Below are positions 2,724 to 18,628 of a stretch of DNA of 37,980 bases, one piece after another. The position numbers and the translations under genes were made by a program. The notes below the pieces were generated by a model. The model was not told the origin of the DNA, did no database searches, and saw only the letters and a list, made by a program, of their open reading frames with translations. Every line of letters starts with the position of its first letter. Positions within the stretch are counted from its first letter, which is position 1. The stretch comes from Oscillospiraceae bacterium (GTDB lineage Bacteria > Bacillota > Clostridia > Oscillospirales > Ruminococcaceae): the NCBI GenBank assembly GCA_017829005.1, contig JAGAJF010000047.1, forward strand, positions 1 through 37,980, read 5' to 3'.

Positions 2724-3143
2724 TTAAACAAACTTATCCATCATCTCAATCAAAGCAAACATAAACTCTTCCTCGTCATATTTATCGAAATTCGGAATCA
2801 TCTGCTTTATTATCTCAAATCCCGTGTTTGCATATTCTTCTGCAATACCATATACAACATTTGTATCGGTGATTTGATTTTCCTGACCGCTTTTGCGAAG
2901 TTCATCAACAGCCACGGAATAAATGAACGACATTAACGAATCCTTGCCTTTGGCAGAGTTTTCAAGGATAAATCCAAGTTTTGACTTTGAAGGTGTTCTC
3001 TCTCCCTTGTTCACTCCGAGAGCAAGAGCTATCATAAATATATCCGCTCTTTCTCCGTTTGTTTTCATATTCAGCAAATCCACCCTGTCAAAATCTTCTA
3101 TCAGATCCTTGTACTGAGTTCCGATTGAAAGTCTGTCAGCCAT
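2724..3143 (-). CDS. 139-aa protein, last gene of the defence-like operon (possible dnd-associated small protein)
   Basis: Unknown function. It is a mostly helical soluble protein. The segment GERADIFMIALALGVNKGER followed by SKSKLGFI resembles, from memory, small proteins annotated as dnd-system-associated, where a conserved 'A-lalG ... R-p' motif is typical; I could not verify this. A relationship to DndE cannot be shown by eye. ATG 3143 has GAGGTG 5 nt upstream, and the gene starts 4 nt after the stop of the SMC-type ATPase, so the two are translationally coupled. In dnd operons a small gene also follows dndD. The final residues are acidic and helical (DEEEFMFALIEMMD). Confidence 0.65.
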   Translation of the reverse strand: MADRLSIGTQYKDLIEDFDRVDLLNMKTNGERADIFMIALALGVNKGERTPSKSKLGFILENSAKGKDSLMSFIYSVAVDELRKSGQENQITDTNVVYGIAEEYANTGFEIIKQMIPNFDKYDEEEFMFALIEMMDKFV

Positions 3144-3147
3144 CAGA

Positions 3148-5127
3148 TCACCTCATTTCTGTAGTTATCTCGTCTGTAACAAGCTTTGATACAGTCGATG
3201 CTGTACTGTCATTCAGTACCGATTTTATTTCCTCCGAATACTCAGAGGGCGTAAACGCAAGAATAATCTGCTTTTTCTTGCTTATGTCAAGAAGCACCTG
3301 AGCAAAATTCTCCCTGTTTTCATCAGACACTCGTCCAACGGGAGTATCAATAAAAAGGAGATTATCATAACCCGAAACCTCGTGAACAGCAAGTGTAAAT
3401 GCAAGTGCTAGCAGTTCCTTCTCTGCTGCCGAGCAGCTGTTAAGGCACGATGACATTGTAATCTTATGATATAGCTTCAATCTGAAATTAGCATCAAGCT
3501 CAACCCTGCCGTATGTGCCCTTTTTCCATATCAGTGCATCAAACAGCTCCATTGTCTTACTCTCAAGCTGTGTGGTAATATCGGTTACTATTCCATTTTT
3601 GATTTTTACAAGCAGATCCTTTGCTCTCTGAACAAATTCGTATTTTTCTCTGATTTCCTTGCACGCTTGATTTGCTGCCAGAGCATCGGAATACTCCTTG
3701 TTTTTCTCCTGCAGCTTTTTCCTCATAGACTCCAGCTGTTCCTTATACTTGCCTATCTTTTCACGGTTGGAATCCCTTAGCTTTTCATTATCTTCTCTCT
3801 GATGTGTGGCAGCTTCAATTTCTTCAATGCCTGTTACGGTTGATATTCTCTTGAAAAGAACTTCATTCTCTTCCTGAAGCTTCCGTATTTTCTCACTTGC
3901 CTTGTTCAACCTGTCAAACAATGCTTTTTTCGCAGACTCATACTCACTTACATCAAGGCCTCTGCGCACATCATTTTTGATCTCAACAAGTCTTTGAAGA
4001 GATATATTAGAATCATATTTCTGAATAAGCTCTTGGAAATGGTGCTCTGTTGCCTGTGCAAGATTTTCTCCGCACACAGCGCACTTATGTGTCTGAATAC
4101 TCTTTTTCAGAATATCAATATCGGCAACAGGTGAAACGTCATTATCATTCTGCCGCATTTCGATATACTCGTTTGTACGGGAATTCACATCTCTAAGCAT
4201 TATTTTAACAAGGTACTGACGAATAAATTTTGCCAGATCCTTTTTTATTGTTATGAGTTCGGCTTCCTTATCCTTTATTTCTGCTTTATTGCCCTCAAAA
4301 CGTTTATTATCCTCAACAACCGTGTCTGTATTCTTAATAAGCTGATTGCACTTATCAATTTCTTCCTCCGCCATTGCGATCTGCTCTGTCAGAGTGTTGA
4401 TCTCCTTTTCCTTGCTGTCAATATTTTTCTGAATTGTATCAATTTCATCGGCAATGGAATTTGTGATCGGAGATAATTCCTTGATCTTCTTCTGAAATTT
4501 CTTTATAAATGATTCCAGATTTTCAATGACAGACTTATCGATAATATTCACCTGAGCGATTTCATAAATGCTGTCACGAAGGTGAGATACATTTGTGCCC
4601 GTAATGCCAAAATAATTCAGAAGCTGCTCACCGTCGAAAAAGAAATACTCCCTGATTTTTCTCGGCATCTTCTCGGAAATTATTTCGTTTGCAGCATCGC
4701 CGTCACAGAATTTGGTTATTCCGTCAGCCGCTGTAATACCGATCTCAAACTTATCCTTTCCCGCTTGCAATTCGGTTTCCACAGAAATATTTGCAGTTCT
4801 TGTAAATGTGTATTTGCTGCCTGCATCAGTAGCTTCAATAACAACAGATACCATACATACAGTGTCCTTGTTATTACGACATTCACTCAGCGACTGAATA
4901 TTTGCAAGGGGCAGCTTGTCCGCTTTTTCTTCTCCCTCAACAGCCGCTCCCGAAGTGTGGGGTTCATCGCCATACAAGCACCAATTTATTGCATTCAGCA
5001 GATTAGTCTTGCCCGTTCCATTAGTGGCAATAACCAGATGAATATCATTTGCTCCGTTAAGAGAAAAATCGAAGTTCAGATCACGATACTGCCTGTAATT
5101 ATGTATCTTTATCGATTCAAATCTCAC
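3148..5127 (-). CDS. DndD/Rad50-like SMC-family ATPase
   Basis: A 659-aa ATPase with head domains split by a long coiled coil. Walker A is ATNGTGKT (34-41), a Q-loop-region motif FFFDGEQL spans 162-169, and coiled coils run about 195-345 and 370-500. A Rad50-type hook CAVC (349-352) lies near the middle. A degenerate signature SAAEKE (566-571) and Walker B LLFIDTPVGRVSDE (590-603) close the head. FFFDGEQ and IDTPxGRxxxE are hallmarks of the DndD/AAA_23 group that acts in DNA phosphorothioation and related phage-defence operons. The start is GTG 5127, with GGAGGAG 8 nt upstream; the GTG overlaps the TGA of the preceding 63-aa gene. DndC, DndB and a cysteine desulfurase are absent, so this is DndD-like, not a proven DndD. 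It probably binds DNA ends or structures and gates the helicase/nuclease. Confidence 0.85.
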   Translation of the reverse strand: MRFESIKIHNYRQYRDLNFDFSLNGANDIHLVIATNGTGKTNLLNAINWCLYGDEPHTSGAAVEGEEKADKLPLANIQSLSECRNNKDTVCMVSVVIEATDAGSKYTFTRTANISVETELQAGKDKFEIGITAADGITKFCDGDAANEIISEKMPRKIREYFFFDGEQLLNYFGITGTNVSHLRDSIYEIAQVNIIDKSVIENLESFIKKFQKKIKELSPITNSIADEIDTIQKNIDSKEKEINTLTEQIAMAEEEIDKCNQLIKNTDTVVEDNKRFEGNKAEIKDKEAELITIKKDLAKFIRQYLVKIMLRDVNSRTNEYIEMRQNDNDVSPVADIDILKKSIQTHKCAVCGENLAQATEHHFQELIQKYDSNISLQRLVEIKNDVRRGLDVSEYESAKKALFDRLNKASEKIRKLQEENEVLFKRISTVTGIEEIEAATHQREDNEKLRDSNREKIGKYKEQLESMRKKLQEKNKEYSDALAANQACKEIREKYEFVQRAKDLLVKIKNGIVTDITTQLESKTMELFDALIWKKGTYGRVELDANFRLKLYHKITMSSCLNSCSAAEKELLALAFTLAVHEVSGYDNLLFIDTPVGRVSDENRENFAQVLLDISKKKQIILAFTPSEYSEEIKSVLNDSTASTVSKLVTDEITTEMR

Positions 5128-5315
5128 GTTGTCTTCTCCTCCTTCATCTGAGCGATTGCTTTATCTATAGCATCAGAATACTTTTTCTTGTACTGTGTAG
5201 TTTCATAGCTGTTTTCGATAATGGTATGGAGAAATTCATTCATTATCGGATCGTCTTTTGTCTTTTCTTCAAGCTGCTTTGCAAAGGTAGGATTTTTTAT
5301 TGTAAGCTGACTCAT
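5124..5315 (-). CDS. 63-aa operon-specific small protein
   Basis: A short, charged, helical protein of unknown function (central FLHTIIENSYETTQYKKKYS, lysine-rich end). It overlaps the helicase stop by 4 nt (ATGA) and the ATPase start by 4 nt (GTGA), so all three are translated together. A GAGGTG ribosome binding site precedes ATG 5315. Its fixed place between helicase and SMC ATPase suggests a bridging or regulatory subunit; small proteins in this position occur in DNA-modification operons, but I cannot assign a named family. Confidence 0.7.
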   Translation of the reverse strand: MSQLTIKNPTFAKQLEEKTKDDPIMNEFLHTIIENSYETTQYKKKYSDAIDKAIAQMKEEKTT

Positions 5316-7432
5316 TTCTGCACCTCTCTCAGAATCGAATAAACCGTATTGCAGACAGTTACATTATCAAGAGCATTTCTGCTCAGATCAAGCACTCTGT
5401 CCATTTCTTTCTTAAAAATACGCAGCTCAAACTGCCGCATTTCATCATTAAACCCGTTCAGATCGGGTTTTATTATCATATCATAAATATCTGCCTGATA
5501 CTTTCCGGGAGCCTGGCGAATAATTCTGCCGATTCTCTGAACGTATTCTCTCGGATTTGTGCTGCTTGCCATAACGATTGCTCTTTTGGCACTTGGTATA
5601 TCTATACCTTCATCAAGGCATTTTATCGCAACAAGCACCTGATATTTCTTAATTTTAAAGCATTCAATAATATAATCACGCTCAGACCTGCCGCCATATC
5701 TTGTAGAGGGCTTTGTTCCCTGCTGCTGAGTATATGGAGTTGCAGTAATATTTCGTGAAGCAAGTATTCTCATTACCTCATTGATCTGACCGGGATCAAC
5801 AAAAATAATCGTATCGGTAATATCCTCACCGATTTCATCAAGTATTCTTTTAAGCTCGTTATACTTGTTACGGGCTTTTTTCTCAATACCCGCACGCTGA
5901 AATCTCAAACGCTGCAGCCATTCATTTTCTTCATTCTTAGAATAACAGCTTGCCTTTCTGATTTTTTCGGTCAGCCTCTTGTATTCTTCAAGCTCATCAT
6001 CCGTCATCGTAATAAATCTGGGGTGATAATGATAATTAACAAGAAAGGTTTTGCCCGTAAGCGGATTATGCTCTCTCAACGCATCTTCTATTGAAAATAT
6101 AAACGAATCGTTCCCGAAATACTCCTCAATTAGCTTGCTGCCAGCATCATCAAACCATCTTTGCGGAGTTGCACTCAGACCAAGCCGATAAGTATAATCA
6201 TCAACAAGGGCATTCTTCATTTTACCTGCACCCATTCCGTGAACTTCATCACCGACCAGGAACTTCGTTATTCTTGAAGATGATTTTTGCAGCTTATCGA
6301 GGAATTTCTCCGAATGACATATATCGTGTGTTGTATAGACAAACAAATGCTCATATAATCCTGTACTGAGCTTCCGTATCTCTTTTAACAATGCAATGTC
6401 CCAATTCGGAACATTTCCATTGATCTCCATTGAATTTTTCAGCCCAATGTCAAGCTTGTCAATATCAGTTTTCCATTGAGATGATAGATCAGGCTGTGGC
6501 GTTGATATGATTATCAGGATTTTCTTTGTATCTTCAAGAGCATTTTTGATACAACCTATTGCTGTCCTTGTCTTACCTGTTCCCGTTGCCATCTGCAATA
6601 AAAGCTGACGGTTATTGTCGTTCCATTTCTTGACAGCATTCTCCTGATAATAGAACAGTTTCAAGGGCTGTTTTTCTTTCCCTATGCTTTGCCTTGAATA
6701 TTTTTTAGAACTGATCCTTGTCGGCTCAAAATCGGAGCTAACCTTCAGCAAATGTTCCTTTACTGCCTGAGGCACATCTCTGATTTCAACATCGCTTCTG
6801 CTTCCGCTCCAGAAGTTGTTAAATTTCTGAATATCTGAATTTATGAAATCAGTCATACCTTCCCAGCTCATAAAAACCTTAAATTCTTCCGTATTTCCCA
6901 TCCAGCCCGATACAGATTCATTGTTCGAGCCTGAGAAGGTTAATATATTTCCTGCCTGATCACGCATTATCCCGACTTTTTGATGCATAATGCCGCTGCC
7001 AACTATTTCTTCTTGAGATAAACATCTTCCGTTCTTTTTTATTACGGCAATTTTCATCTGAAGCTTTCCGTTTGCAAGCATCCACCCCAAAGCCTTAACG
7101 TGATCCCTTTGGAATTCAGTTTCAATTTCTTCGTATGATTTTATGAAATGATCGGATAGGATCTCGTCCATATTGTTGACAGACTTTTCAAGCATAGATA
7201 TATCGTTGGAGCTGAGCTGCGGACACGTTACCAATCTCATAACTCCGCCGTTAGATATAAATTCGCTTATTCCCCTTGCAGCGATTGCAAGTGATGACGA
7301 TGAAAAGAACCCTGCTATTCTGTCATATGAATTCGCCCGTGACAGTACGGGAATGTAGAAATCCCATACAAGATCATCTTCACCCGAATCATATGCGACT
7401 TTAAGCGGTAAATCCGAAAAATCCAATATCAA
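5312..7432 (-). CDS. PLD-nuclease/SF2 helicase fusion
   Basis: A 706-aa two-part protein. The N-terminal ~250 residues form a phospholipase D-type nuclease domain with one HKD motif: His150-x-Lys152, Asp158, then SGSNNES (167-173). The C-terminal part is a DEAD/DEAH-type SF2 helicase: Walker A ATGTGKT (282-288), DEVH box (395-398), SATP motif III (420-423), the motif V region CLDEGIDIP (605-613) and motif VI QRIGRIIR (632-639). The start is TTG 7432, 7 nt after GGGGTG. A PLD domain normally needs two HKD motifs in one active site, so dimerisation is likely. Helicase-PLD fusions occur in restriction and phage-defence loci. Here it would be the effector that unwinds and cuts invading DNA, working with the SMC ATPase encoded downstream. 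Confidence 0.88.
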   Translation of the reverse strand: MILDFSDLPLKVAYDSGEDDLVWDFYIPVLSRANSYDRIAGFFSSSSLAIAARGISEFISNGGVMRLVTCPQLSSNDISMLEKSVNNMDEILSDHFIKSYEEIETEFQRDHVKALGWMLANGKLQMKIAVIKKNGRCLSQEEIVGSGIMHQKVGIMRDQAGNILTFSGSNNESVSGWMGNTEEFKVFMSWEGMTDFINSDIQKFNNFWSGSRSDVEIRDVPQAVKEHLLKVSSDFEPTRISSKKYSRQSIGKEKQPLKLFYYQENAVKKWNDNNRQLLLQMATGTGKTRTAIGCIKNALEDTKKILIIISTPQPDLSSQWKTDIDKLDIGLKNSMEINGNVPNWDIALLKEIRKLSTGLYEHLFVYTTHDICHSEKFLDKLQKSSSRITKFLVGDEVHGMGAGKMKNALVDDYTYRLGLSATPQRWFDDAGSKLIEEYFGNDSFIFSIEDALREHNPLTGKTFLVNYHYHPRFITMTDDELEEYKRLTEKIRKASCYSKNEENEWLQRLRFQRAGIEKKARNKYNELKRILDEIGEDITDTIIFVDPGQINEVMRILASRNITATPYTQQQGTKPSTRYGGRSERDYIIECFKIKKYQVLVAIKCLDEGIDIPSAKRAIVMASSTNPREYVQRIGRIIRQAPGKYQADIYDMIIKPDLNGFNDEMRQFELRIFKKEMDRVLDLSRNALDNVTVCNTVYSILREVQK

Positions 7433-7450
7433 GTCTGATCACCCCTGAAT

Positions 7451-8140
7451 TTACTCCCAGATAAATTTGTCAAAGAGATTTATGCTGTCATTGCAAAGGT
7501 CACAAATCTCCTTTACCATAGTTTTAACATTTGATCTGCGCCTGATAACTGTGCTTTCGCTGAGGCAAGTCCGCATAAGCTCCGTAGGATAAGCACTTCC
7601 GTACAATGAATCTGCCATAACCTTCTGAATAATAGGGATTTTCATATACAGCTTTGGACGAAGTAGAAGTTTTTCCTTTTCCGATAATTTCATATAACTC
7701 TCACCGAAATATGTAACACGAAACGGTGCTTTTCGGGTGACAAGTCCCATAATCGACGCCGTTTTATAATGATTCTCACCATATTTACGATGGGCGCCTT
7801 CCTTTGCGTCCTTTTTATAGTAATATCCAAAAAGTTCGTAATCACCATCGGGATTTGTTTTAACGGTAGAAAGTATAGTATTTACATAGTTTATATCACT
7901 GAACTGAGGAATATTCTTTGAATCCATTGTACCGATAAGTTCATCATTATCATCAATGAAATCAATTATATCTTCTATACACATATCACTTATGTGTTTT
8001 ATCATAATATCGGCAGCTTTGATACATCTTTCGTCACCATTATCGGTACTTTCAAATGAATCGCTGTAATTGAAGAAAAATGCTTTTAGAGCCGTTTCAT
8101 AGTCTGATGAAAGGATTGCAGAGGTATAATCACTATCCAT
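7451..8140 (-). CDS. hypothetical 229-aa protein of the defence-like operon
   Basis: Not recognised. It is acidic in the first 80 residues (IEDIIDFIDDNDELIG), then basic, and ends with a segment (ESTVIRRRSNVKTMVKEICD) that could be part of a winged helix or DNA-recognition region; this is a guess from composition. No catalytic motif is visible. ATG 8140 has GGAGGAG about 8 nt upstream. It starts 5 nt after the radical SAM gene and ends 18 nt before the helicase, so it is firmly part of the operon. A DNA-specificity or adaptor subunit would fit the position. Confidence 0.7.
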   Translation of the reverse strand: MDSDYTSAILSSDYETALKAFFFNYSDSFESTDNGDERCIKAADIMIKHISDMCIEDIIDFIDDNDELIGTMDSKNIPQFSDINYVNTILSTVKTNPDGDYELFGYYYKKDAKEGAHRKYGENHYKTASIMGLVTRKAPFRVTYFGESYMKLSEKEKLLLRPKLYMKIPIIQKVMADSLYGSAYPTELMRTCLSESTVIRRRSNVKTMVKEICDLCNDSINLFDKFIWE

Positions 8141-8145
8141 AGATC

Positions 8146-9465
8146 TTACTCCTCCTTTTTCTGCTTTTTCAGAAGCTTCTCTTTTTCTTTCTCAGCTTTT
8201 AATCTCTTGCGTCCTATTACATATTCCTGCTCATTGTATTTCATATCAAAATATGCCGCAGCTATTTCGGGAAACTTCTCTTCAAATTCGGTCATAGCAG
8301 CCATAGCGGAGCATAACGTTCCCTCAGTCTTATGATAAGCCTGATTTGCTTCACAATATTCTCTGAAAGAATAATTACGCATAAAGGAAGGCTGATTGCA
8401 CCAACGGGCAATAGTAATGAATAAACTCCGATAAGGGCTTGTCTGATAAAGCTCGTGACGCATTATGTAAGGAAAACAGCCATAACGAATAAGTATCTGT
8501 ATTCTCCTGAACACGCTCTCTATCTCACGTTCGTCCTGTGAGGCAAATCCCGCAAGAACATACAGCTTTGTGGATTTATGACAATACTGCCGCCAGAGCT
8601 GCAGCTTCTGCTCAATGATCTCCGCATCTTCTATATGATCAAAGGCAAAAATAATATCGCCGTGATATTTGGCTTCATTCAGTATTCTTGCCTTTTCCTC
8701 AGTCAAGAGCCTTATATCCATACCCTGACGGAACTGAAAAGGCTTGCCTATTTCTTTCAGCTCTTCAAATACATCTCTCCAATGGGAATATCCGAAAATG
8801 TTATCATCCCAAAGATATATAGCTTTACGGGTAGGATCATACCATTCCGAAATATGAGAGTGAAAGTTGACACGCTTAACATTGTGATTAACACAGAAGG
8901 CACACTGTCTGAAACACCCTCTTGTGGCAAAGCCGATAGAGTAGTTCAGATAGTCCTTGAAATAGACCTCTTTATTCTTGTGAGTAGTATCGTGCTCGAT
9001 ATACTGATCATAAATATGATAGTCGGGCATATGATGCTCGATGCAATCAGGCAGTTTGGGAGCGTGATCGAAAAAGAAGCCTGTACCGCCGATATACACG
9101 TTTGGCAGAGTAAGAAGTTCTGTATTTATCTTTGTAAAATCGAACACCTTTGAAATATAAATAGCATCATACTCCTGAGCTTTTGAGAAATCATAGCCGG
9201 AATCGTCGGGCATCGAACAGCTATTTATCAGTGTCCGTTCAGTAAACAATTCCGAATAATCTTCAATAAGTCGGACTGTACAGCCATTCTCCTTAAAATA
9301 ACCCGATAGTTTCATAATGACAAGATTCGGGTGCCTTGTTCCTGCATCGAGCAGATCCGCATCAACCAGCGCAATGTTGCCAATAATATCGTATCTTAAT
9401 TCGATTTGATCAATAGCTGATAAGGGATATATTCCATGATCGTTTGGCAGATCTGATAATCGCAT
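8146..9465 (-). CDS. radical SAM enzyme, first gene of the defence-like operon
   Basis: A 439-aa radical SAM protein. The N-terminal ~130 residues look like a Rossmann-type (cobalamin-binding-like) domain containing IALVDADLLDAG and HPNLVIMKLSGYF. The radical SAM core begins at TRGCFRQCAFC with Cys184-x3-Cys188-x2-Cys191 for the 4Fe-4S cluster, followed by LWDDNIFGY and a barrel. The tail is a lysine/glutamate-rich helix. I chose ATG 9465 because AGGTG lies 7 nt before it; GTG 9501 has no ribosome binding site and lies too close to the expected transcription start. Relatives with a PNLaLMKlSaYhK motif occur in phages and mobile DNA with unknown substrates. In this operon it may modify DNA or a nucleotide, or make a signal; none of this is shown. 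Confidence 0.85.
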   Translation of the reverse strand: MRLSDLPNDHGIYPLSAIDQIELRYDIIGNIALVDADLLDAGTRHPNLVIMKLSGYFKENGCTVRLIEDYSELFTERTLINSCSMPDDSGYDFSKAQEYDAIYISKVFDFTKINTELLTLPNVYIGGTGFFFDHAPKLPDCIEHHMPDYHIYDQYIEHDTTHKNKEVYFKDYLNYSIGFATRGCFRQCAFCVNHNVKRVNFHSHISEWYDPTRKAIYLWDDNIFGYSHWRDVFEELKEIGKPFQFRQGMDIRLLTEEKARILNEAKYHGDIIFAFDHIEDAEIIEQKLQLWRQYCHKSTKLYVLAGFASQDEREIESVFRRIQILIRYGCFPYIMRHELYQTSPYRSLFITIARWCNQPSFMRNYSFREYCEANQAYHKTEGTLCSAMAAMTEFEEKFPEIAAAYFDMKYNEQEYVIGRKRLKAEKEKEKLLKKQKKEE

Positions 9466-9521
9466 AATCAAACACCTGTTTTCTTGAATATATAATGACA
9501 CTATAAATATGTATATAGATC

Positions 9522-9550
9522 ATTATACACAATTAGTATGTGTATGTCAA
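9522..9550 (-). promoter_or_regulatory. perfect consensus sigma-A promoter of the defence-like operon
   Basis: On the minus strand, TTGACA (9545-9550) and TATAAT (9522-9527) are separated by exactly 17 bp: a full consensus promoter. The start point would be near 9515, about 50 nt before ATG 9465. It lies in the divergent region shared with the XRE regulator, which suggests that the regulator represses it. Confidence 0.85.
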
Positions 9551-9555
9551 TAAAT

Positions 9556-9614
9556 ATCACCATTTTTTATGGGCATATTTTTATGATGTATGCACTATAA
9601 TTGTTATAGGTGAT
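9556..9614. promoter_or_regulatory. possible XRE operator region and regulator promoter
   Basis: A plus-strand -10 box TATAAT (9596-9601) lies 16 nt before ATG 9618 with only a weak -35. ATCACC (9556-9561) and GGTGAT (9609-9614) form an inverted pair around it; the right half overlaps the ribosome binding site. This fits autoregulation, but the operator is not proven. Confidence 0.4.
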
Positions 9615-9617
9615 TAT

Positions 9618-9926
9618 ATGATTGATGAAAAATACATTTCAGATAGGATCGCAAATCTGAGAAGTGCTATGAATGTTTCTGCACGTGATATGAGCCTTTC
9701 TTTAGGACAAAGCCCCAATTATATCAACAACATTGAAAACCATAAAGCATTGCCATCAATGACAATGTTTCTGATCATCTGCGATTATCTGAAAGTATCC
9801 CCAAAAGAATTCTTTGATGAAGATTTAAAAAAACCTGTTTTGATAAATGAGTTATGCAGTATTGCCACAAGGCTTAATAGTGAACAGCTTGAACATTTAA
9901 TCGGTTTTATAAAAAATAAAGATTAA
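9618..9926 (+). CDS. XRE-family helix-turn-helix regulator
   Basis: A 102-aa protein with a typical Cro/C1 HTH: ISDRIANLRSAMNVSARDMS, then LGQSPNYINNIEN and PSMTMFLIICDYLKVSP. The start is ATG 9618 behind AGGTGAT; an upstream in-frame extension lacks a ribosome binding site. The C-terminal 30 residues form a short helix pair often used for dimerisation. It is transcribed away from the six-gene defence-like operon and probably controls that operon and itself. Such divergent XRE genes commonly restrain costly defence operons. Confidence 0.88.
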   Translation: MIDEKYISDRIANLRSAMNVSARDMSLSLGQSPNYINNIENHKALPSMTMFLIICDYLKVSPKEFFDEDLKKPVLINELCSIATRLNSEQLEHLIGFIKNKD

Positions 9927-10722: not shown

Positions 10723-11673
10723 TTATCCTCCGTATTCGCAGGTCATCATATCTCTGTACTCACTGACGATCGCTCTCATACTGAAAGGTTCATACAGCAT
10801 TTCTTCTATCTCAAGTGCATCATACCCCAAATCAACCAGCATCAGTATGTCACTTTCGTCAAAGCCGAAGTATCCTGCACACCTTATAAGTGTATCAAGC
10901 TCGGTTTCGTCGATATCGGAATCATCATATCTGCTCCAATAGGGATAGAAGGAATACCCATAATCCTCGTTATCGAAGCTGCTTCTGCTGATGGAACCGT
11001 CAGCTGATATCTTCACTATCTCACCGGCTTTGATATCAACATTGCTCTTCTTATGGATATGAAGTCTCTTGAGTGTTTTGTCGATAATATCTGCAGTGCT
11101 TGCATACAGATAATATCCACCGCATTCATATATCACAAGAGGATTGCTGCCCTTCACAAGATACAGGTCATTAGTGTCAGTCAGTATAGAAAAGCAGAAT
11201 GAGCCGCTTACAGTTTCTGCCATTTTTGCAATGCTATCAAAAGTTATCTCCCCGTAATGCTCAAGGAGCTGCACTGCTATGTAGCTGTCGGTTTCTATGG
11301 TAGTATTCGGCAGATCCATAGTCCTTCTGAGGTATTCATCGTTATTCAGAACACCATTATGAGCAAGAGCAAATCTTCCGCTTGGCACTCTACCATAGAA
11401 CGGATGATTGTTGCTGTTGATATCCTGACTGCCCTTAGTGGTCATTCGTGTATGTCCAATGACAATATGGCTCTCCCTGGGGAGAGTGAACTTGAATTTA
11501 GATGCTGCCACGGGTCGTTTATATACATGCATACCGTCATTCGATACATATGCTATGCCCGTTGCATCCGTACCTCTGACCTCACATTCCTGTGAAAGTA
11601 CACGCAGAATAGTCCTTCTCGCAAATGTGGGAAGGCTGTTTTTATAGTCGATAATTCCAAATAAGCTGCACAT
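10723..11673 (-). CDS. class II glutamine amidotransferase (Ntn hydrolase) paired with an amidoligase
   Basis: A 316-aa protein starting Met-Cys (MCSLFGIID): Cys2 becomes the N-terminal nucleophile that releases ammonia from glutamine. Further family motifs are RGTDATGIAY, GHTRMTTKG, LAHNGVLNN and TIETDSYIA, as in GATase_6/7 domains. There is no sugar isomerase or synthetase domain, so the acceptor reaction must come from a partner. The upstream gene, only 1 nt away, encodes an amidoligase, the known genomic companion of such stand-alone GATases in phages and mobile elements. The C-terminal 80 residues are acidic with a helical repeat (DESDILMLVDLGYDALEIEEM). GGAGG lies 10 nt before ATG 11673. 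Confidence 0.85.
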   Translation of the reverse strand: MCSLFGIIDYKNSLPTFARRTILRVLSQECEVRGTDATGIAYVSNDGMHVYKRPVAASKFKFTLPRESHIVIGHTRMTTKGSQDINSNNHPFYGRVPSGRFALAHNGVLNNDEYLRRTMDLPNTTIETDSYIAVQLLEHYGEITFDSIAKMAETVSGSFCFSILTDTNDLYLVKGSNPLVIYECGGYYLYASTADIIDKTLKRLHIHKKSNVDIKAGEIVKISADGSISRSSFDNEDYGYSFYPYWSRYDDSDIDETELDTLIRCAGYFGFDESDILMLVDLGYDALEIEEMLYEPFSMRAIVSEYRDMMTCEYGG

Positions 11674-11674
11674 A

Positions 11675-12763
11675 TCAATATTCCTCCGTTTCTGTTACAG
11701 GTTCATTTACATAGAGTCTTCGTTCTTTGAGATACTGAATAAGCTCAGGCTCGGTAATTACAGATACAAACTCAGGCCAGGACAGCGATGTAATTTCTTC
11801 ATCTGTCATGCTGATAGCCGCCTTACATATACGATCTACCATCTGAAGCGTTGCTATCAGGGTATTGTGTTTGAGAGTGCCCCTGAAAATCCTGAACTCA
11901 ATGGTATAGTAGTTGCAAAGGTTAATGCAGGCATATCGTCCTTTGCCTGTTGTCTTGGCATTATCCATGACCTGCTTGGGGTTGTCCTTGATGCCGTATC
12001 TTGCTGCCCAGCGGTTTATCTGAGATTCTGTTCTTCTTGAAAACCTAAGCATTTCCTGCCAGAAGCGTTCTATAAAGAACAGTATCCTTGAGATCACCGC
12101 ATCCTGTTCGGACTTATCACATCCGAAAGCTGTTCTGTTTACATGAACGTGAAGTCCGCAGGTAGATGTCTTGTGTGAACGATAGCCCAAAGAAATAGCC
12201 TTGGAGGTCAGTTCTCTCCAAGGCATTGTGTTATGATGATATTCAAGAGTCATAGGGTGTGTAACAAGCTCCATTCCTTCGTCAAGGCTTCCGTCCGTCT
12301 TGATATACAGCTGTGATTTATCTGCAATATCACACAAAGTCCCTGCACTGCTGTCCTCACAGCCTGCACCATCTATCTCAAGCTCAACTCCCATATACAG
12401 TTTTCCATCTCCATGGAATATGGGTTCGGGCTTGTAGGAATAGCTGTGAATAAACTTCCTTTTGTGATTGGAATAACAGCTGTGGCAGTAAGGATAGTCG
12501 GAATCCTCGTCCATGTAGTATGCATCATCATCGTGGATAAGCCTTCCGCAGTCCTCACAGCTAACATAGTGATTATCACGGCAATGACGGCAAAGCGTGA
12601 TATTATCATCACCCTCATCATCCTCATTCCATATTCTTTCACCACAGCATTCACAGGTGCGGGTATTTGAGTCATAGCAGTCCTCACACATTATGGTATC
12701 TCCCATGGTATAGATATCATTCTCGTCAAGTTCGCAGCCGCAATTGGCACATATTATGCTCAT
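11675..12763 (-). CDS. zinc-ribbon + amidoligase (COOH-NH2 ligase) protein
   Basis: A 362-aa two-part protein. The first ~110 residues carry repeated CxxC units (CANCGCEL, CEDCYDS, CECCGERI, CRHCRD, CEDCGRL, CHSCYS) typical of treble-clef/zinc-ribbon modules. The rest matches the Amidoligase_2 family of the glutamine-synthetase-like fold: YMGVELEIDG, KTDGSLDEGMELVTHP, CGLHVHVNR and the EFRIFRGT motif. These enzymes are inferred to join an amine to a protein or peptide carboxylate with ATP. ATG 12763 is preceded by GGAGGAG; a longer in-frame extension lacks a site. The stop lies 1 nt before the amidotransferase gene, so ammonia delivery or peptide modification by the pair is likely. Target unknown. 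Confidence 0.85.
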   Translation of the reverse strand: MSIICANCGCELDENDIYTMGDTIMCEDCYDSNTRTCECCGERIWNEDDEGDDNITLCRHCRDNHYVSCEDCGRLIHDDDAYYMDEDSDYPYCHSCYSNHKRKFIHSYSYKPEPIFHGDGKLYMGVELEIDGAGCEDSSAGTLCDIADKSQLYIKTDGSLDEGMELVTHPMTLEYHHNTMPWRELTSKAISLGYRSHKTSTCGLHVHVNRTAFGCDKSEQDAVISRILFFIERFWQEMLRFSRRTESQINRWAARYGIKDNPKQVMDNAKTTGKGRYACINLCNYYTIEFRIFRGTLKHNTLIATLQMVDRICKAAISMTDEEITSLSWPEFVSVITEPELIQYLKERRLYVNEPVTETEEY

Positions 12764-12790
12764 TATTTTTTCTCCTCCATAAACATAATT

Positions 12791-12822
12791 ATCCCACAGG
12801 CACCTCTTGGTGCCCATGGGAT
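12791..12822 (-). other. 14-bp intercistronic hairpin
   Basis: On the minus strand ATCCCATGGGCACC pairs fully (two G-U pairs) with GGTGCCTGTGGGAT around AAGA. It sits between the DUF960 gene and the amidoligase gene and has no T-run. An RNA processing or partial attenuation role would fit. Confidence 0.55.
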
Positions 12823-17578: not shown

Positions 17579-17607
17579 TTGAATATTATGGAAAAATGTA
17601 GTATAAT
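17579..17607 (+). promoter_or_regulatory. promoter of the secreted serine hydrolase
   Basis: TTGAAT (17579-17584) and TATAAT (17602-17607), 17-bp spacer, about 30 nt before ATG 17639. Confidence 0.7.
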
Positions 17608-17638
17608 TTGTAGGATTTTGTTTATGGGGAAGGTAATT

Positions 17639-18628
17639 ATGTTGAAAAAGATATTGGCTGTTTTATCGGCTGTCATGCTTTGTATGACAACGACCTTTAC
17701 TGCGGAAGCGAAGGCTTTCAGCAGCGAGGATATTACCGGAAAATGCATTGAAATAATGAAAAAGCACTGTAGCATTTCTCGGACGCCTATCAGAATTGAC
17801 CCTCAGGCAAAAAAGGAAAATGTCACCTTTGGCGGAGAAGCTTTCACTTATACAAATACTGATTTCAGGCTGGAAATGGCGGACAACGGCAAGCTTATCT
17901 CTCTTCTCAAAAGTGTAAAATACAATAAAAGCTTTATCCTTTATGACATTGAAAGCGGTGCGGCGCTTAGCTACAATGACAGCAAGTATTATCCCGTTGC
18001 AAGCACAGTCAAGGCTCCGTTTGTAATGACCTGCCTCAGTTCTATTGACAGCGGCGAACATTCCCTTGACGAGAAAATGACCTATACATCAAAATTCTAT
18101 GCAGGCGGCTGCGGTACAATAAAAAAATCGGCTTACGGAACAGTTTACGACCTCCGCTCCATTATCACGACCACCATTGTTAACAGCGACAATTCGGGAT
18201 ATCATATGCTGCAAAACCACTTCGGATATGAAAATTACAACAGCTTCCTCACATCGCTGGGCAACAAGGCAACTATCAACAAATATGTGAAATGGGGACA
18301 GACCTCTCCTATGGATTCTCTCAGAAACTGGGCTGAAATTTATAATTACACCGAAAGCGGCACTCAAAGCGGCGATTTTCTGAAAGAGCTTCTTACAAGC
18401 ACCACCGACAGCTGCATTCGCCCCACTATCGGTGAACGGCACACCATTGCAAACAAGATGGGCTGGATGTTCGGCACCTGCTGTCACGATCACGCCATTG
18501 TTTATGACGAGAAGCCGTACATACTCATCATTATGACCGACGGAGACGGCTATGACAAGAACCAGCAGTATGTGGGCAAGCTTGCGCTTATGCTTGATGA
18601 TATACACGAAATGATGATATCGGAATGA
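17639..18628 (+). CDS. secreted class A beta-lactamase-fold serine hydrolase
   Basis: A 329-aa protein with a signal peptide (MLKKILAVLSAVMLCMTTTF, cut near AEA-KA). The domain has the three beta-lactamase/DD-peptidase landmarks: Ser122-x-x-Lys125 (STVK), SDN (183-185) and a KTG-like KMG (273-275). The change from KTG to KMG, the absence of a clear Glu-omega loop motif by eye and the extra ~90 residues before the SxxK suggest a serine hydrolase of the beta-lactamase2 family rather than a proven resistance enzyme. The start is ATG 17639, with GGGGAAGG upstream and a promoter fitting it; longer starts lie inside the promoter. A strong bidirectional terminator overlaps its stop. Confidence 0.8.
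   Translation: MLKKILAVLSAVMLCMTTTFTAEAKAFSSEDITGKCIEIMKKHCSISRTPIRIDPQAKKENVTFGGEAFTYTNTDFRLEMADNGKLISLLKSVKYNKSFILYDIESGAALSYNDSKYYPVASTVKAPFVMTCLSSIDSGEHSLDEKMTYTSKFYAGGCGTIKKSAYGTVYDLRSIITTTIVNSDNSGYHMLQNHFGYENYNSFLTSLGNKATINKYVKWGQTSPMDSLRNWAEIYNYTESGTQSGDFLKELLTSTTDSCIRPTIGERHTIANKMGWMFGTCCHDHAIVYDEKPYILIIMTDGDGYDKNQQYVGKLALMLDDIHEMMISE

What the first reader, a model, noticed from the sequence alone, without database searches (positions are those of the whole stretch)
2724..9550. Candidate undescribed defence operon: radical SAM + PLD-helicase + DndD/Rad50-like ATPase
Six genes with 4-nt overlaps or gaps under 20 nt share one perfect promoter and sit between an IS remnant and a resolvase. 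The combination has parts of DNA-modification/restriction systems (DndD-like ATPase, helicase, nuclease domain), but no desulfurase, DndC, DndB, DndE-like enzyme that I can recognise, or methyltransferase. A radical SAM enzyme is the only candidate modifier. Inference: either a radical-SAM-based DNA modification with a helicase-nuclease restriction arm, or a nuclease complex fed by a radical-SAM product.
Basis: partly seen in the sequence, partly recalled or inferred. Interest (0 to 1): 0.88.

Follow-up and report, generated by a model that had tools for sequence, protein, structure and literature searches.

The report
Radical-SAM version of Pbe phage defence
Four of these six genes are a known bacterial virus-defence machine that normally reads a sulphur mark on DNA; here the sulphur-marking genes are absent and a radical-SAM enzyme with an adaptor protein stands in their place, which hints at a still unknown chemical mark on DNA.

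Summary
The operon is real. Four of its six genes are not undescribed: PbeA (HKD/PLD nuclease-helicase), PbeB, PbeC (CxC/DndD-like ATPase) and PbeD (DndE-type), i.e. the PbeABCD or 'CxC' system, known as a restriction partner of phosphorothioate (PT) DNA. The other two, a radical-SAM enzyme (rSAM) and a 229-aa protein ('mid'), matched no defence family. rSAM, mid and PbeA occur together in 19 loci including the window; in one rSAM and mid are fused. The same rSAM-mid pair also stands with two other restriction-type modules (ParB/SNF2 helicase in 6 loci, GmrSD-type in 4). 'Mid' is homologous by profile to DUF7226, a domain of R-M-linked proteins. In 23 usable PbeA loci, rSAM and PT-type genes never share a locus (7 rSAM, 13 PT-type, 3 neither; Fisher p=0.0005). 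DndC passes its cut-off in 2 of 22 rSAM-Pbe genomes. Viral contigs carry rSAM genes without mid, 43-53% identical to the window's, some beside DNA methylases or Mom. Best reading: rSAM, with mid, writes a self mark that is not PT, and PbeABCD attacks unmarked DNA. The chemistry is unknown and untested. Verdict: new variant of a known system, with a portable writer module I found no report of.

The parts
8146..9501 (-). rSAM: radical SAM enzyme (451 aa from GTG 9501; probably 439 aa from ATG 9465); B12-binding-like N domain (by relatives), C196-C200-C203 cluster site, QGMD motif
   Evidence: PHROG 9298 'radical SAM domain protein' 2.7e-45; three Cys invariant in 41 of 41; AF2 pLDDT 88, Foldseek top hit 2qgq prob 1.00, E 2.5e-3, TM 0.28/0.43; start codon
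7451..8140 (-). mid: 229-aa adaptor homologous by profile to DUF7226, C-terminal domain of R-M-linked proteins (KYGENH...RRRSN motifs); predicted DNA-reading or adaptor subunit
   Evidence: hhalign prob 96.1, controls at most 0.5; DUF7226 proteins next to DNA methylases; fused to rSAM in L171
5312..7432 (-). PbeA: HKD/PLD nuclease domain + SF2 helicase (706 aa)
   Evidence: PADLOC PbeA 3.5e-215; TIGR04095 7.6e-103, below cut-off; motifs
5124..5315 (-). PbeB-like small protein (63 aa)
   Evidence: position and 4-nt overlaps; local HMM finds it in the same place in relatives; no PADLOC match
3148..5127 (-). PbeC: CxC-type DndD-like ABC ATPase (659 aa, CAVC hook)
   Evidence: PADLOC PbeC 3.5e-82; TIGR03185 DndD 8.5e-35, below cut-off; motifs
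2724..3143 (-). PbeD: DndE-type partner (139 aa)
   Evidence: TIGR04062 6.6e-6, below its cut-off; same place in relatives
9522..9550 (-). consensus sigma-70 promoter TTGACA-17-TATAAT of the operon
9540..9926 (+). divergent Cro/C1-type HTH gene (ATG about 9618), possible regulator
   Evidence: HTH_19 2.1e-8; an HTH_26 gene directly precedes rSAM in L067 and an HTH-like ORF in L092 by reading; link inferred

Best explanation
A PbeABCD (CxC ATPase-DndE) defence system whose self mark is written by a radical SAM enzyme instead of the PT enzymes. Steps: (1) rSAM plus mid puts a covalent, non-PT mark on host DNA, with mid (DUF7226-type) as DNA-reading or docking subunit [inferred]; (2) PbeC-PbeD scan DNA and PbeA translocates and nicks or blocks unmarked invading DNA, PbeB gating this [by analogy with DndCDEA-PbeABCD and the model in PMC10853773]; (3) rSAM-mid is a portable module that also stands with ParB/SNF2 and GmrSD-type modules [co-occurrence shown]; (4) phages carry rSAM genes of the same family without mid, plausibly to mark their own DNA and escape [presence shown, use inferred].
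For: Four genes are Pbe. rSAM, mid and PbeA occur together in 19 loci including the window: 12 with six intact genes in order; L066, L073, L076, L083 cut at contig ends (L083 also has a stop in PbeC); L080 with PbeC frameshifted; L141 with rSAM on the opposite strand; L171 with rSAM-mid fused. Of 31 genome loci found by rSAM, 24 have mid, and all 24 carry one of three restriction-type modules: Pbe 14, ParB/SNF2 6, GmrSD-type 4. rSAM and PT-type genes exclude each other around PbeA: 0 both, 7 rSAM, 13 PT-type, 3 neither, p=0.0005; without L159, whose PT call rests on its own gene as marker, p=0.0013. DndC is over its cut-off in 2 of 22 rSAM-Pbe genomes, with one more weak match, and has no match in three single-contig ones. 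Four of the 7 have another radical SAM subfamily right after PbeD. Rows from viral contigs are 43-53% identical to the window rSAM (14), next to Mom or DNA methylases in some. PT-marked virus escapes archaeal DndCDEA-PbeABCD (PMC6459918, passages), so Pbe there spares marked DNA.
Against: No direct evidence of any DNA modification, substrate or defence activity. mid distances track PbeA and PbeC (r 0.90, 0.93) far more than rSAM (0.42) in 11 loci, so mid may belong to the restriction side. Two rSAM-Pbe genomes do have DndC (one, G723, beside a second PbeABCD). Three of 23 PbeA loci have neither writer. The 23 loci are related to each other, so the Fisher p is too small if read as independent events; PT genes beyond the fetched stretches would be missed, and DndC is an imperfect sign of PT (2 of 4 PT-type genomes tested pass its cut-off). 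11 of 17 viral loci were not shown to have a DNA-modifying gene within two genes of rSAM.
Confidence: 0.55

Rival explanations
1. rSAM modifies a protein of the machine (PbeC, PbeD, mid, or a replication protein) or an RNA, not DNA.
For: B12-like radical SAM enzymes act on proteins and RNA too (established knowledge); the best solved-structure match is 2qgq, TM_1862, which I recall as RimO, a ribosomal-protein methylthiotransferase.
Against: rSAM stands with three different restriction-type modules and in viral contigs without Pbe or mid in the stretches seen, so no single protein partner explains all; no second cysteine triad is invariant.
Confidence: 0.15
2. rSAM makes a small antiviral molecule (such as a chain-terminating nucleotide, viperin-like) that stops replication; PbeABCD senses or assists.
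For: Archaeal DndCDEA-PbeABCD blocks replication without cleaving viral DNA (PMC6459918, passages); prokaryotic viperins are radical SAM defence enzymes (PMC12926258 passage).
Against: No PADLOC or NCBIfam match for rSAM; phages themselves carry the gene; it takes the place of a DNA writer beside Pbe.
Confidence: 0.12
3. rSAM-mid removes or alters protective modifications on invading DNA, or marks it, so that the modules attack modified (type IV-like) DNA.
For: GmrSD-type partners in four loci belong to a family known for restricting modified DNA; mid resembles a domain of R-M-linked proteins.
Against: rSAM in phages would then expose their own DNA; PbeABCD spares marked DNA in the one tested system.
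Confidence: 0.1
4. rSAM and mid are passengers in a defence island without a working link to PbeABCD.
For: rSAM distances track PbeA only moderately (r=0.40).
Against: Same order in different flanks, fused rSAM-mid inside the operon, junctions of 5 and 18 nt, exclusion with PT-type genes.
Confidence: 0.04

Closest known systems
DndCDEA-PbeABCD (Xiong 2019, PMC6459918)
   Same: PbeA, PbeB, PbeC and PbeD; PbeA and PbeC by PADLOC profile
   Different: no DndC or DndA in the operon; rSAM and mid instead; DndC over its cut-off in only 2 of 22 rSAM-Pbe genomes
CxC ABC ATPase-DndE systems (Rakesh 2024, PMC10853773)
   Same: CxC-hook ATPase (CAVC), DndE-type partner, HKD-helicase, small protein; that paper says such systems also occur without the DndD-centric system and some with cytosine methylases (section 16 read)
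   Different: that paper mentions radical SAM twice, in the passage on the claimed DndC mechanism; no radical SAM partner or mid is described in the passages and the two sections I saw; its supplements were not seen
R-M-linked proteins of the DUF6996-DUF6997-DUF7226 type (endonucleases by inference)
   Same: mid is homologous by profile to their DUF7226 C-terminal domain
   Different: mid lacks the DUF6996 and DUF6997 parts, and its partner is a radical SAM enzyme, not a methylase
GmrSD / DUF262 restriction enzymes
   Same: GmrSD_N proteins stand with rSAM-mid in L075, L081, L082, L084
   Different: none in the window operon; known GmrSD work without a writer (recalled)
Phage PHROG 9298 radical SAM proteins
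   Same: same family as the window rSAM (2.7e-45); 14 viral rows 43-53% identical
   Different: no mid in the stretches seen; no function annotated beyond the name
Prokaryotic viperins
   Same: radical SAM enzymes in phage defence
   Different: rSAM matched no PADLOC or NCBIfam model
EVE-linked cobalamin-dependent radical SAM genes (PMC7641849)
   Same: a radical SAM gene beside a modified-base reader domain, reported in Alteromonadales (passage)
   Different: no Pbe, mid or GmrSD module is mentioned in that passage

Membership tests
PbeABCD (CxC ATPase-DndE) system | PbeA: HKD nuclease + SF2 helicase | tested here: met
   PADLOC PDLC02707 3.5e-215; HxK, GSxN and helicase motifs
PbeABCD (CxC ATPase-DndE) system | PbeC: DndD-like ATPase with CxC-clade hook | tested here: met
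   PDLC02712 3.5e-82; CAVC at 349
PbeABCD (CxC ATPase-DndE) system | PbeD: DndE cognate | tested here: inconclusive
   TIGR04062 6.6e-6, under its cut-off; right place and length; conserved in relatives
PbeABCD (CxC ATPase-DndE) system | PbeB: small fast-evolving protein between PbeA and PbeC | tested here: met
   63 aa, overlaps of 4 nt on both sides; homologue in relatives; no PADLOC model matched
PT-based DndCDEA-PbeABCD | DndC and DndA (PT writer) in the locus or genome | tested here: not met
   none among the operon's profile matches; no DndC match in G000; DndA not sought genome-wide
Radical SAM superfamily | CxxxCxxC cluster site in a TIM-barrel fold | tested here: met
   C196, C200, C203 in 41 of 41; AF2 model with 2qgq and HemN among Foldseek hits, none at E 0.001 or better; Pfam PF04055 only weak (best 0.11, 2 of 4 members)
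B12-dependent radical SAM | cobalamin binding | not testable with these tools
   Pfam B12-binding matches the related PbeD-adjacent rSAM of L142 (1.2e-12), not the window protein
DUF7226 | Pfam gathering score | tested here: not met
   1 of 25 mid proteins, at E 0.011; profile-profile homology only
Viperin | match to a defence or NCBIfam family model | tested here: not met
   no PADLOC or NCBIfam match for rSAM at E 1
Anti-phage defence | protection in a phage assay | not testable with these tools
   needs a bench test

The most novel reading that the evidence does not exclude
A radical SAM enzyme plus a DUF7226-type reader is a portable DNA-marking module making an undescribed, non-PT mark, used as self label by at least three different restriction modules, and taken up alone by phages as counter-defence.
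Probability: 0.45. Interest if true: 0.93.

Novelty: new variant of a known kind. Interest (0 to 1): 0.8.

Why it matters
In the work I saw, PbeABCD was tested only with PT-marked DNA. If a radical SAM writer can replace PT, the Dnd/Pbe core reads marks of very different chemistry, radical chemistry becomes a source of DNA self marks in bacteria, and one writer module is shared by several restriction modules and by phages. It also gives a direct test: DNA mass spectrometry of named isolates that carry it, such as Peptacetobacter hominis ZHW00191 (L065) or Anaerovibrio sp. JC8 (L079).

Tried and rejected
Rejected: 'wholly undescribed system' (PADLOC); 'PT system with hidden DndC' (no DndC match in G000); viperin (no family match); passenger genes (recurrence and fusion). 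Led nowhere: PDB sequence searches (one weak hit each); Foldseek of mid in PDB and in viral models (no significant match); VIA-align (library not present); mid in plasmids (no match); viral scan with PbeA (no relative confirmed); a PADLOC family search for PbeA over 391 genomes that rang in 390 of 391 and in all 14 controls through its generic helicase part (I then fetched seven stretches, six of them high-scoring PbeA places); the paper 10.1093/nar/gkaa726, the earlier CxC survey by recall, is not held, so whether it names rSAM I do not know; 'DUF7226' in papers: 0.

A test of phage neighbours by sequence motif gave 4 of 17 viral loci (L111 dropped as a repeat of L110) with a methylase-like gene within two genes of rSAM, 1.08 expected for a random gene of the same loci, p 0.0037; the motif rule misses some methylases, and one of its four (L104) failed Pfam at 1e-5. 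In one search I tested only ten chosen neighbours, so the Pfam count is not a rate.

The count of six intact genes fell from 13 to 12, because PbeD of L073 runs off its contig.
Full report
WHAT IS THERE. The window is the whole contig C156 (37,980 bases) of a 2.9 Mb, 163-contig genome (contig length). On the minus strand lie six genes from 9501 down to 2724 with junctions of 5, 18, -4, -4 and 4 nt, behind a 12-of-12 sigma-70 consensus at 9550-9522 that occurs in 1 of 100 shuffles of the window. A divergent HTH gene, a resolvase and a transposase fragment (read by eye) flank it. The four other genomes of the same genus listed have no match to the radical SAM gene, so the locus looks accessory.

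FOUR GENES ARE KNOWN. PADLOC names the 706-aa gene PbeA (3.5e-215) and the 659-aa gene PbeC (3.5e-82); NCBIfam gives the PT restriction enzyme TIGR04095 (7.6e-103), DndD TIGR03185 (8.5e-35) and, for the last gene, TIGR04062 'DNA phosphorothioation-associated protein 4' (6.6e-6), all below their curated cut-offs. The 63-aa gene holds the PbeB place. In PMC6459918 (passages) DndCDEA-PbeABCD blocks virus replication in an archaeon and PT-marked virus escapes. PMC10853773 (outline, passages and sections 16 and 17) identifies this with the CxC ATPase-DndE system, says it also occurs without the DndD-centric system, sometimes with cytosine methylases, and mentions radical SAM only for DndC.

TWO GENES ARE NOT. 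The 451-aa protein has no PADLOC or NCBIfam match and no significant Pfam one, but matches phage family PHROG 9298, 'radical SAM domain protein' (2.7e-45). Its CxxxCxxC is invariant in 41 relatives, and no other cysteine is (C342 in 39 of 41). An AlphaFold2 model (pLDDT 88) is nearest to 2qgq, TM_1862 (Foldseek prob 1.00, E 2.5e-3, TM 0.28/0.43); HemN, a radical SAM enzyme, is sixth, many of the others listed are other barrel enzymes, and none reaches E 0.001. The 229-aa protein ('mid') has no PADLOC or Pfam match. Its 25-member profile aligns over 155 columns with the DUF7226 region of eight proteins at probability 96.1, against at most 0.5 for five unrelated families and 20 column shuffles (three of the eight rows entered at full length because the trimming rule did not find their motif; with all eight at full length 96.5). 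The two DUF7226 proteins run through Pfam (L163, L170) have DUF6996-DUF6997-DUF7226 architecture, and one stands beside a D12 and one beside an N6/N4 DNA methylase; that they are restriction endonucleases is inferred. In Pfam alone only 1 of 25 mid proteins hits DUF7226 (0.011), 4 of 25 hit AAA_assoc_C (best 0.00068); so does L170 (1e-5).

THE SIX GENES RECUR. The rSAM profile found 31 loci in one genome scan: 14 rSAM-mid-Pbe, 6 rSAM-ParB-135aa-SNF2-ParB-like-mid (all four partner genes found by BLAST in each), 4 rSAM-mid with a GmrSD_N protein (in L075 divergent), 1 rSAM with a split GmrSD-type homologue but no mid (L088), 2 in elements with a C5-methylase-like gene nearby (L089, tested; L090 by reading), 1 cut by its contig end (L091), 3 short or partial (L093-L095). 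In 12 all six genes are complete and in order (window, L058, L065, L068, L070, L072, L074, L079, L085, L086, L092, L140); L066, L073, L076 and L083 are cut at contig ends (L083 also has a stop in PbeC), L080 has PbeC in two frames, L141 has rSAM on the other strand, and in L171 rSAM and mid form one 632-aa protein (rSAM 535.5 bits, mid 158.8 bits) followed by PbeA, PbeB, PbeC and PbeD. Flanks differ between the loci listed. The tree of 41 rSAM proteins mixes module types and phages: 'Pbe' needs 9 changes, 6 forced by well-supported branches; it is still somewhat clustered (21 of 500 shuffles as low).

IN PLACE OF THE PT WRITER. PbeA was sought in 398 genomes of the phylum at E 1e-50: 24 genomes match. 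I fetched the 23 other than the window, dropped L145 (a 7-kb contig with a partial PbeA), and scored radical SAM (HMM, E 0.01) and PT-type genes (BLAST, E 1e-8, to DndC, DndA and PAPS-reductase-like markers taken from L059, L063, L143, L147, L153 and L159) in each stretch: 0 both, 7 radical SAM only, 13 PT-type only, 3 neither, Fisher p 0.0005. Markers from L143, L147, L153 and L159 score their own locus; L147 and L153 are PAPS_reduct by Pfam, and L143 also matches the DndA of L059, but L159 rests on its own untested gene; moving it to 'neither' gives p 0.0013. The loci are related, so p is a guide only. Of the 7, three carry the window-type rSAM (window, L140, L141) and four (L142, L144, L152, L156) another radical SAM right after PbeD, related to the first by profile (99.2 for L144+L156, 99.4 for L152, 94.0 for L142); Pfam Radical_SAM passes its cut-off in L144 only, and L142 has a B12-binding domain (1.2e-12). 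DndC (TIGR03183) was sought in whole genomes: over the cut-off in 2 of 16 window-type carriers (G723, beside a second PbeABCD; G1041, the MAG of L083; a third, G1033, has a weak match), 1 of 6 ParB/SNF2 carriers, 0 of 4 GmrSD-type carriers, and no match in 6 further radical-SAM-Pbe genomes, three of them single-contig. As controls, G874 and G799 were positive; G934 and G716, whose Pbe loci carry a desulfurase-type gene by reading, had no match; of four PT-type genomes two pass the cut-off (G1200, G1373) and two match weakly (G1226, G1366); of the three 'neither' genomes G1182 and G1435 have no match and G1137 one below the cut-off. DndC alone thus does not catch every sulphur route, and several carriers are draft assemblies.

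PHAGES. A viral scan gave 18 loci, of which L110 and L111 have the same match. The 14 viral proteins put into alignment A5 (L108-L111 left out) are 43-53% identical to the window rSAM in it. None of the 18 shows mid by HMM in the stretch held, but L099, L100 and L109 end soon after rSAM, so a mid there cannot be ruled out. Chosen neighbours tested with Pfam are Mom (L102, 1.4e-41), N6/N4 methylases (L097), MT-A70 (L101), D12 (L112) and C5 methylases (L099, further off; L105, L106); a neighbour in L104 failed at 1e-5. So 6 of 17 distinct loci have such a gene within two genes. In an Oscillospiraceae phage record the gene overlaps a DNA methyltransferase gene. A motif-based test gave 4 of 17 against 1.08 expected, p 0.0037. 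L171 is a viral contig that carries the whole system.

HOW IT MOST LIKELY WORKS. The tested PbeABCD spares PT-marked DNA. Here the PT writer is missing and a radical SAM enzyme holds its place, so the simplest reading is that this enzyme writes the mark, with mid as reader or docking subunit; phages that carry the enzyme alone would be marked as self. Shown: gene content, recurrence, fusion, exclusion with PT-type genes in this sample, sharing with phages. Inferred: that the substrate is DNA, that the mark protects, that mid reads DNA. Against a simple writer subunit for mid: its distances follow PbeA and PbeC (0.90, 0.93) much more than rSAM (0.42) in 11 loci, so mid may be the link between writer and restriction side, while rSAM is exchanged more freely.

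NOVELTY. Paper searches and passages of PMC10853773, PMC9239176, PMC12926258 and PMC7641849 gave no report of a radical SAM partner of PbeABCD; the nearest is a radical SAM gene beside an EVE modified-base reader in Alteromonadales (PMC7641849 passage). The library holds open-licence papers only, supplements were not seen, and the earlier CxC survey is not held. I file it as a new variant of the Pbe/CxC system, not as a PT system, because the PT writer was sought and not found.

Noticed in passing
L144, L150, L152, L156, L161: PbeA in these loci is preceded by a large protein (958-1320 aa). Of the three tested, L152 and L161 hold Sigma70_r4 over its cut-off (L152 also RNA_pol_A_CTD), L150 both just below cut-off; role unknown.
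   Followed up: partly
L067:11170-15731 and L069, L071, L077, L078, L087: rSAM-ParB-135aa-SNF2-ParB-like-mid: a second candidate defence operon, same layout in six loci; the 135-aa protein has a PD...E-K nuclease-like stretch by reading.
   Followed up: partly
L144:15565-16911: An Hsp90-like ATPase (HATPase_c_3, 2.1e-15) follows the second type of Pbe-linked radical SAM; a similar-sized ORF follows in L156.
   Followed up: no
L085:14708-18295 (L025): A further large PLD-helicase-like gene (1051 aa) and a 143-aa gene stand right after PbeD.
   Followed up: no
L089, L090: What looks like one element in Faecalimonas and Blautia carries the rSAM gene near a C5 methylase gene, after a 1831-1832-aa protein.
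   Followed up: no
window 17579-18628: An ORF that reads like a serine beta-lactamase-type hydrolase; not searched.
   Followed up: no
window 10723-12817: A glutamine-amidotransferase-like and an amidoligase-like ORF beside the resolvase, as seen in mobile elements; by reading only.
   Followed up: no
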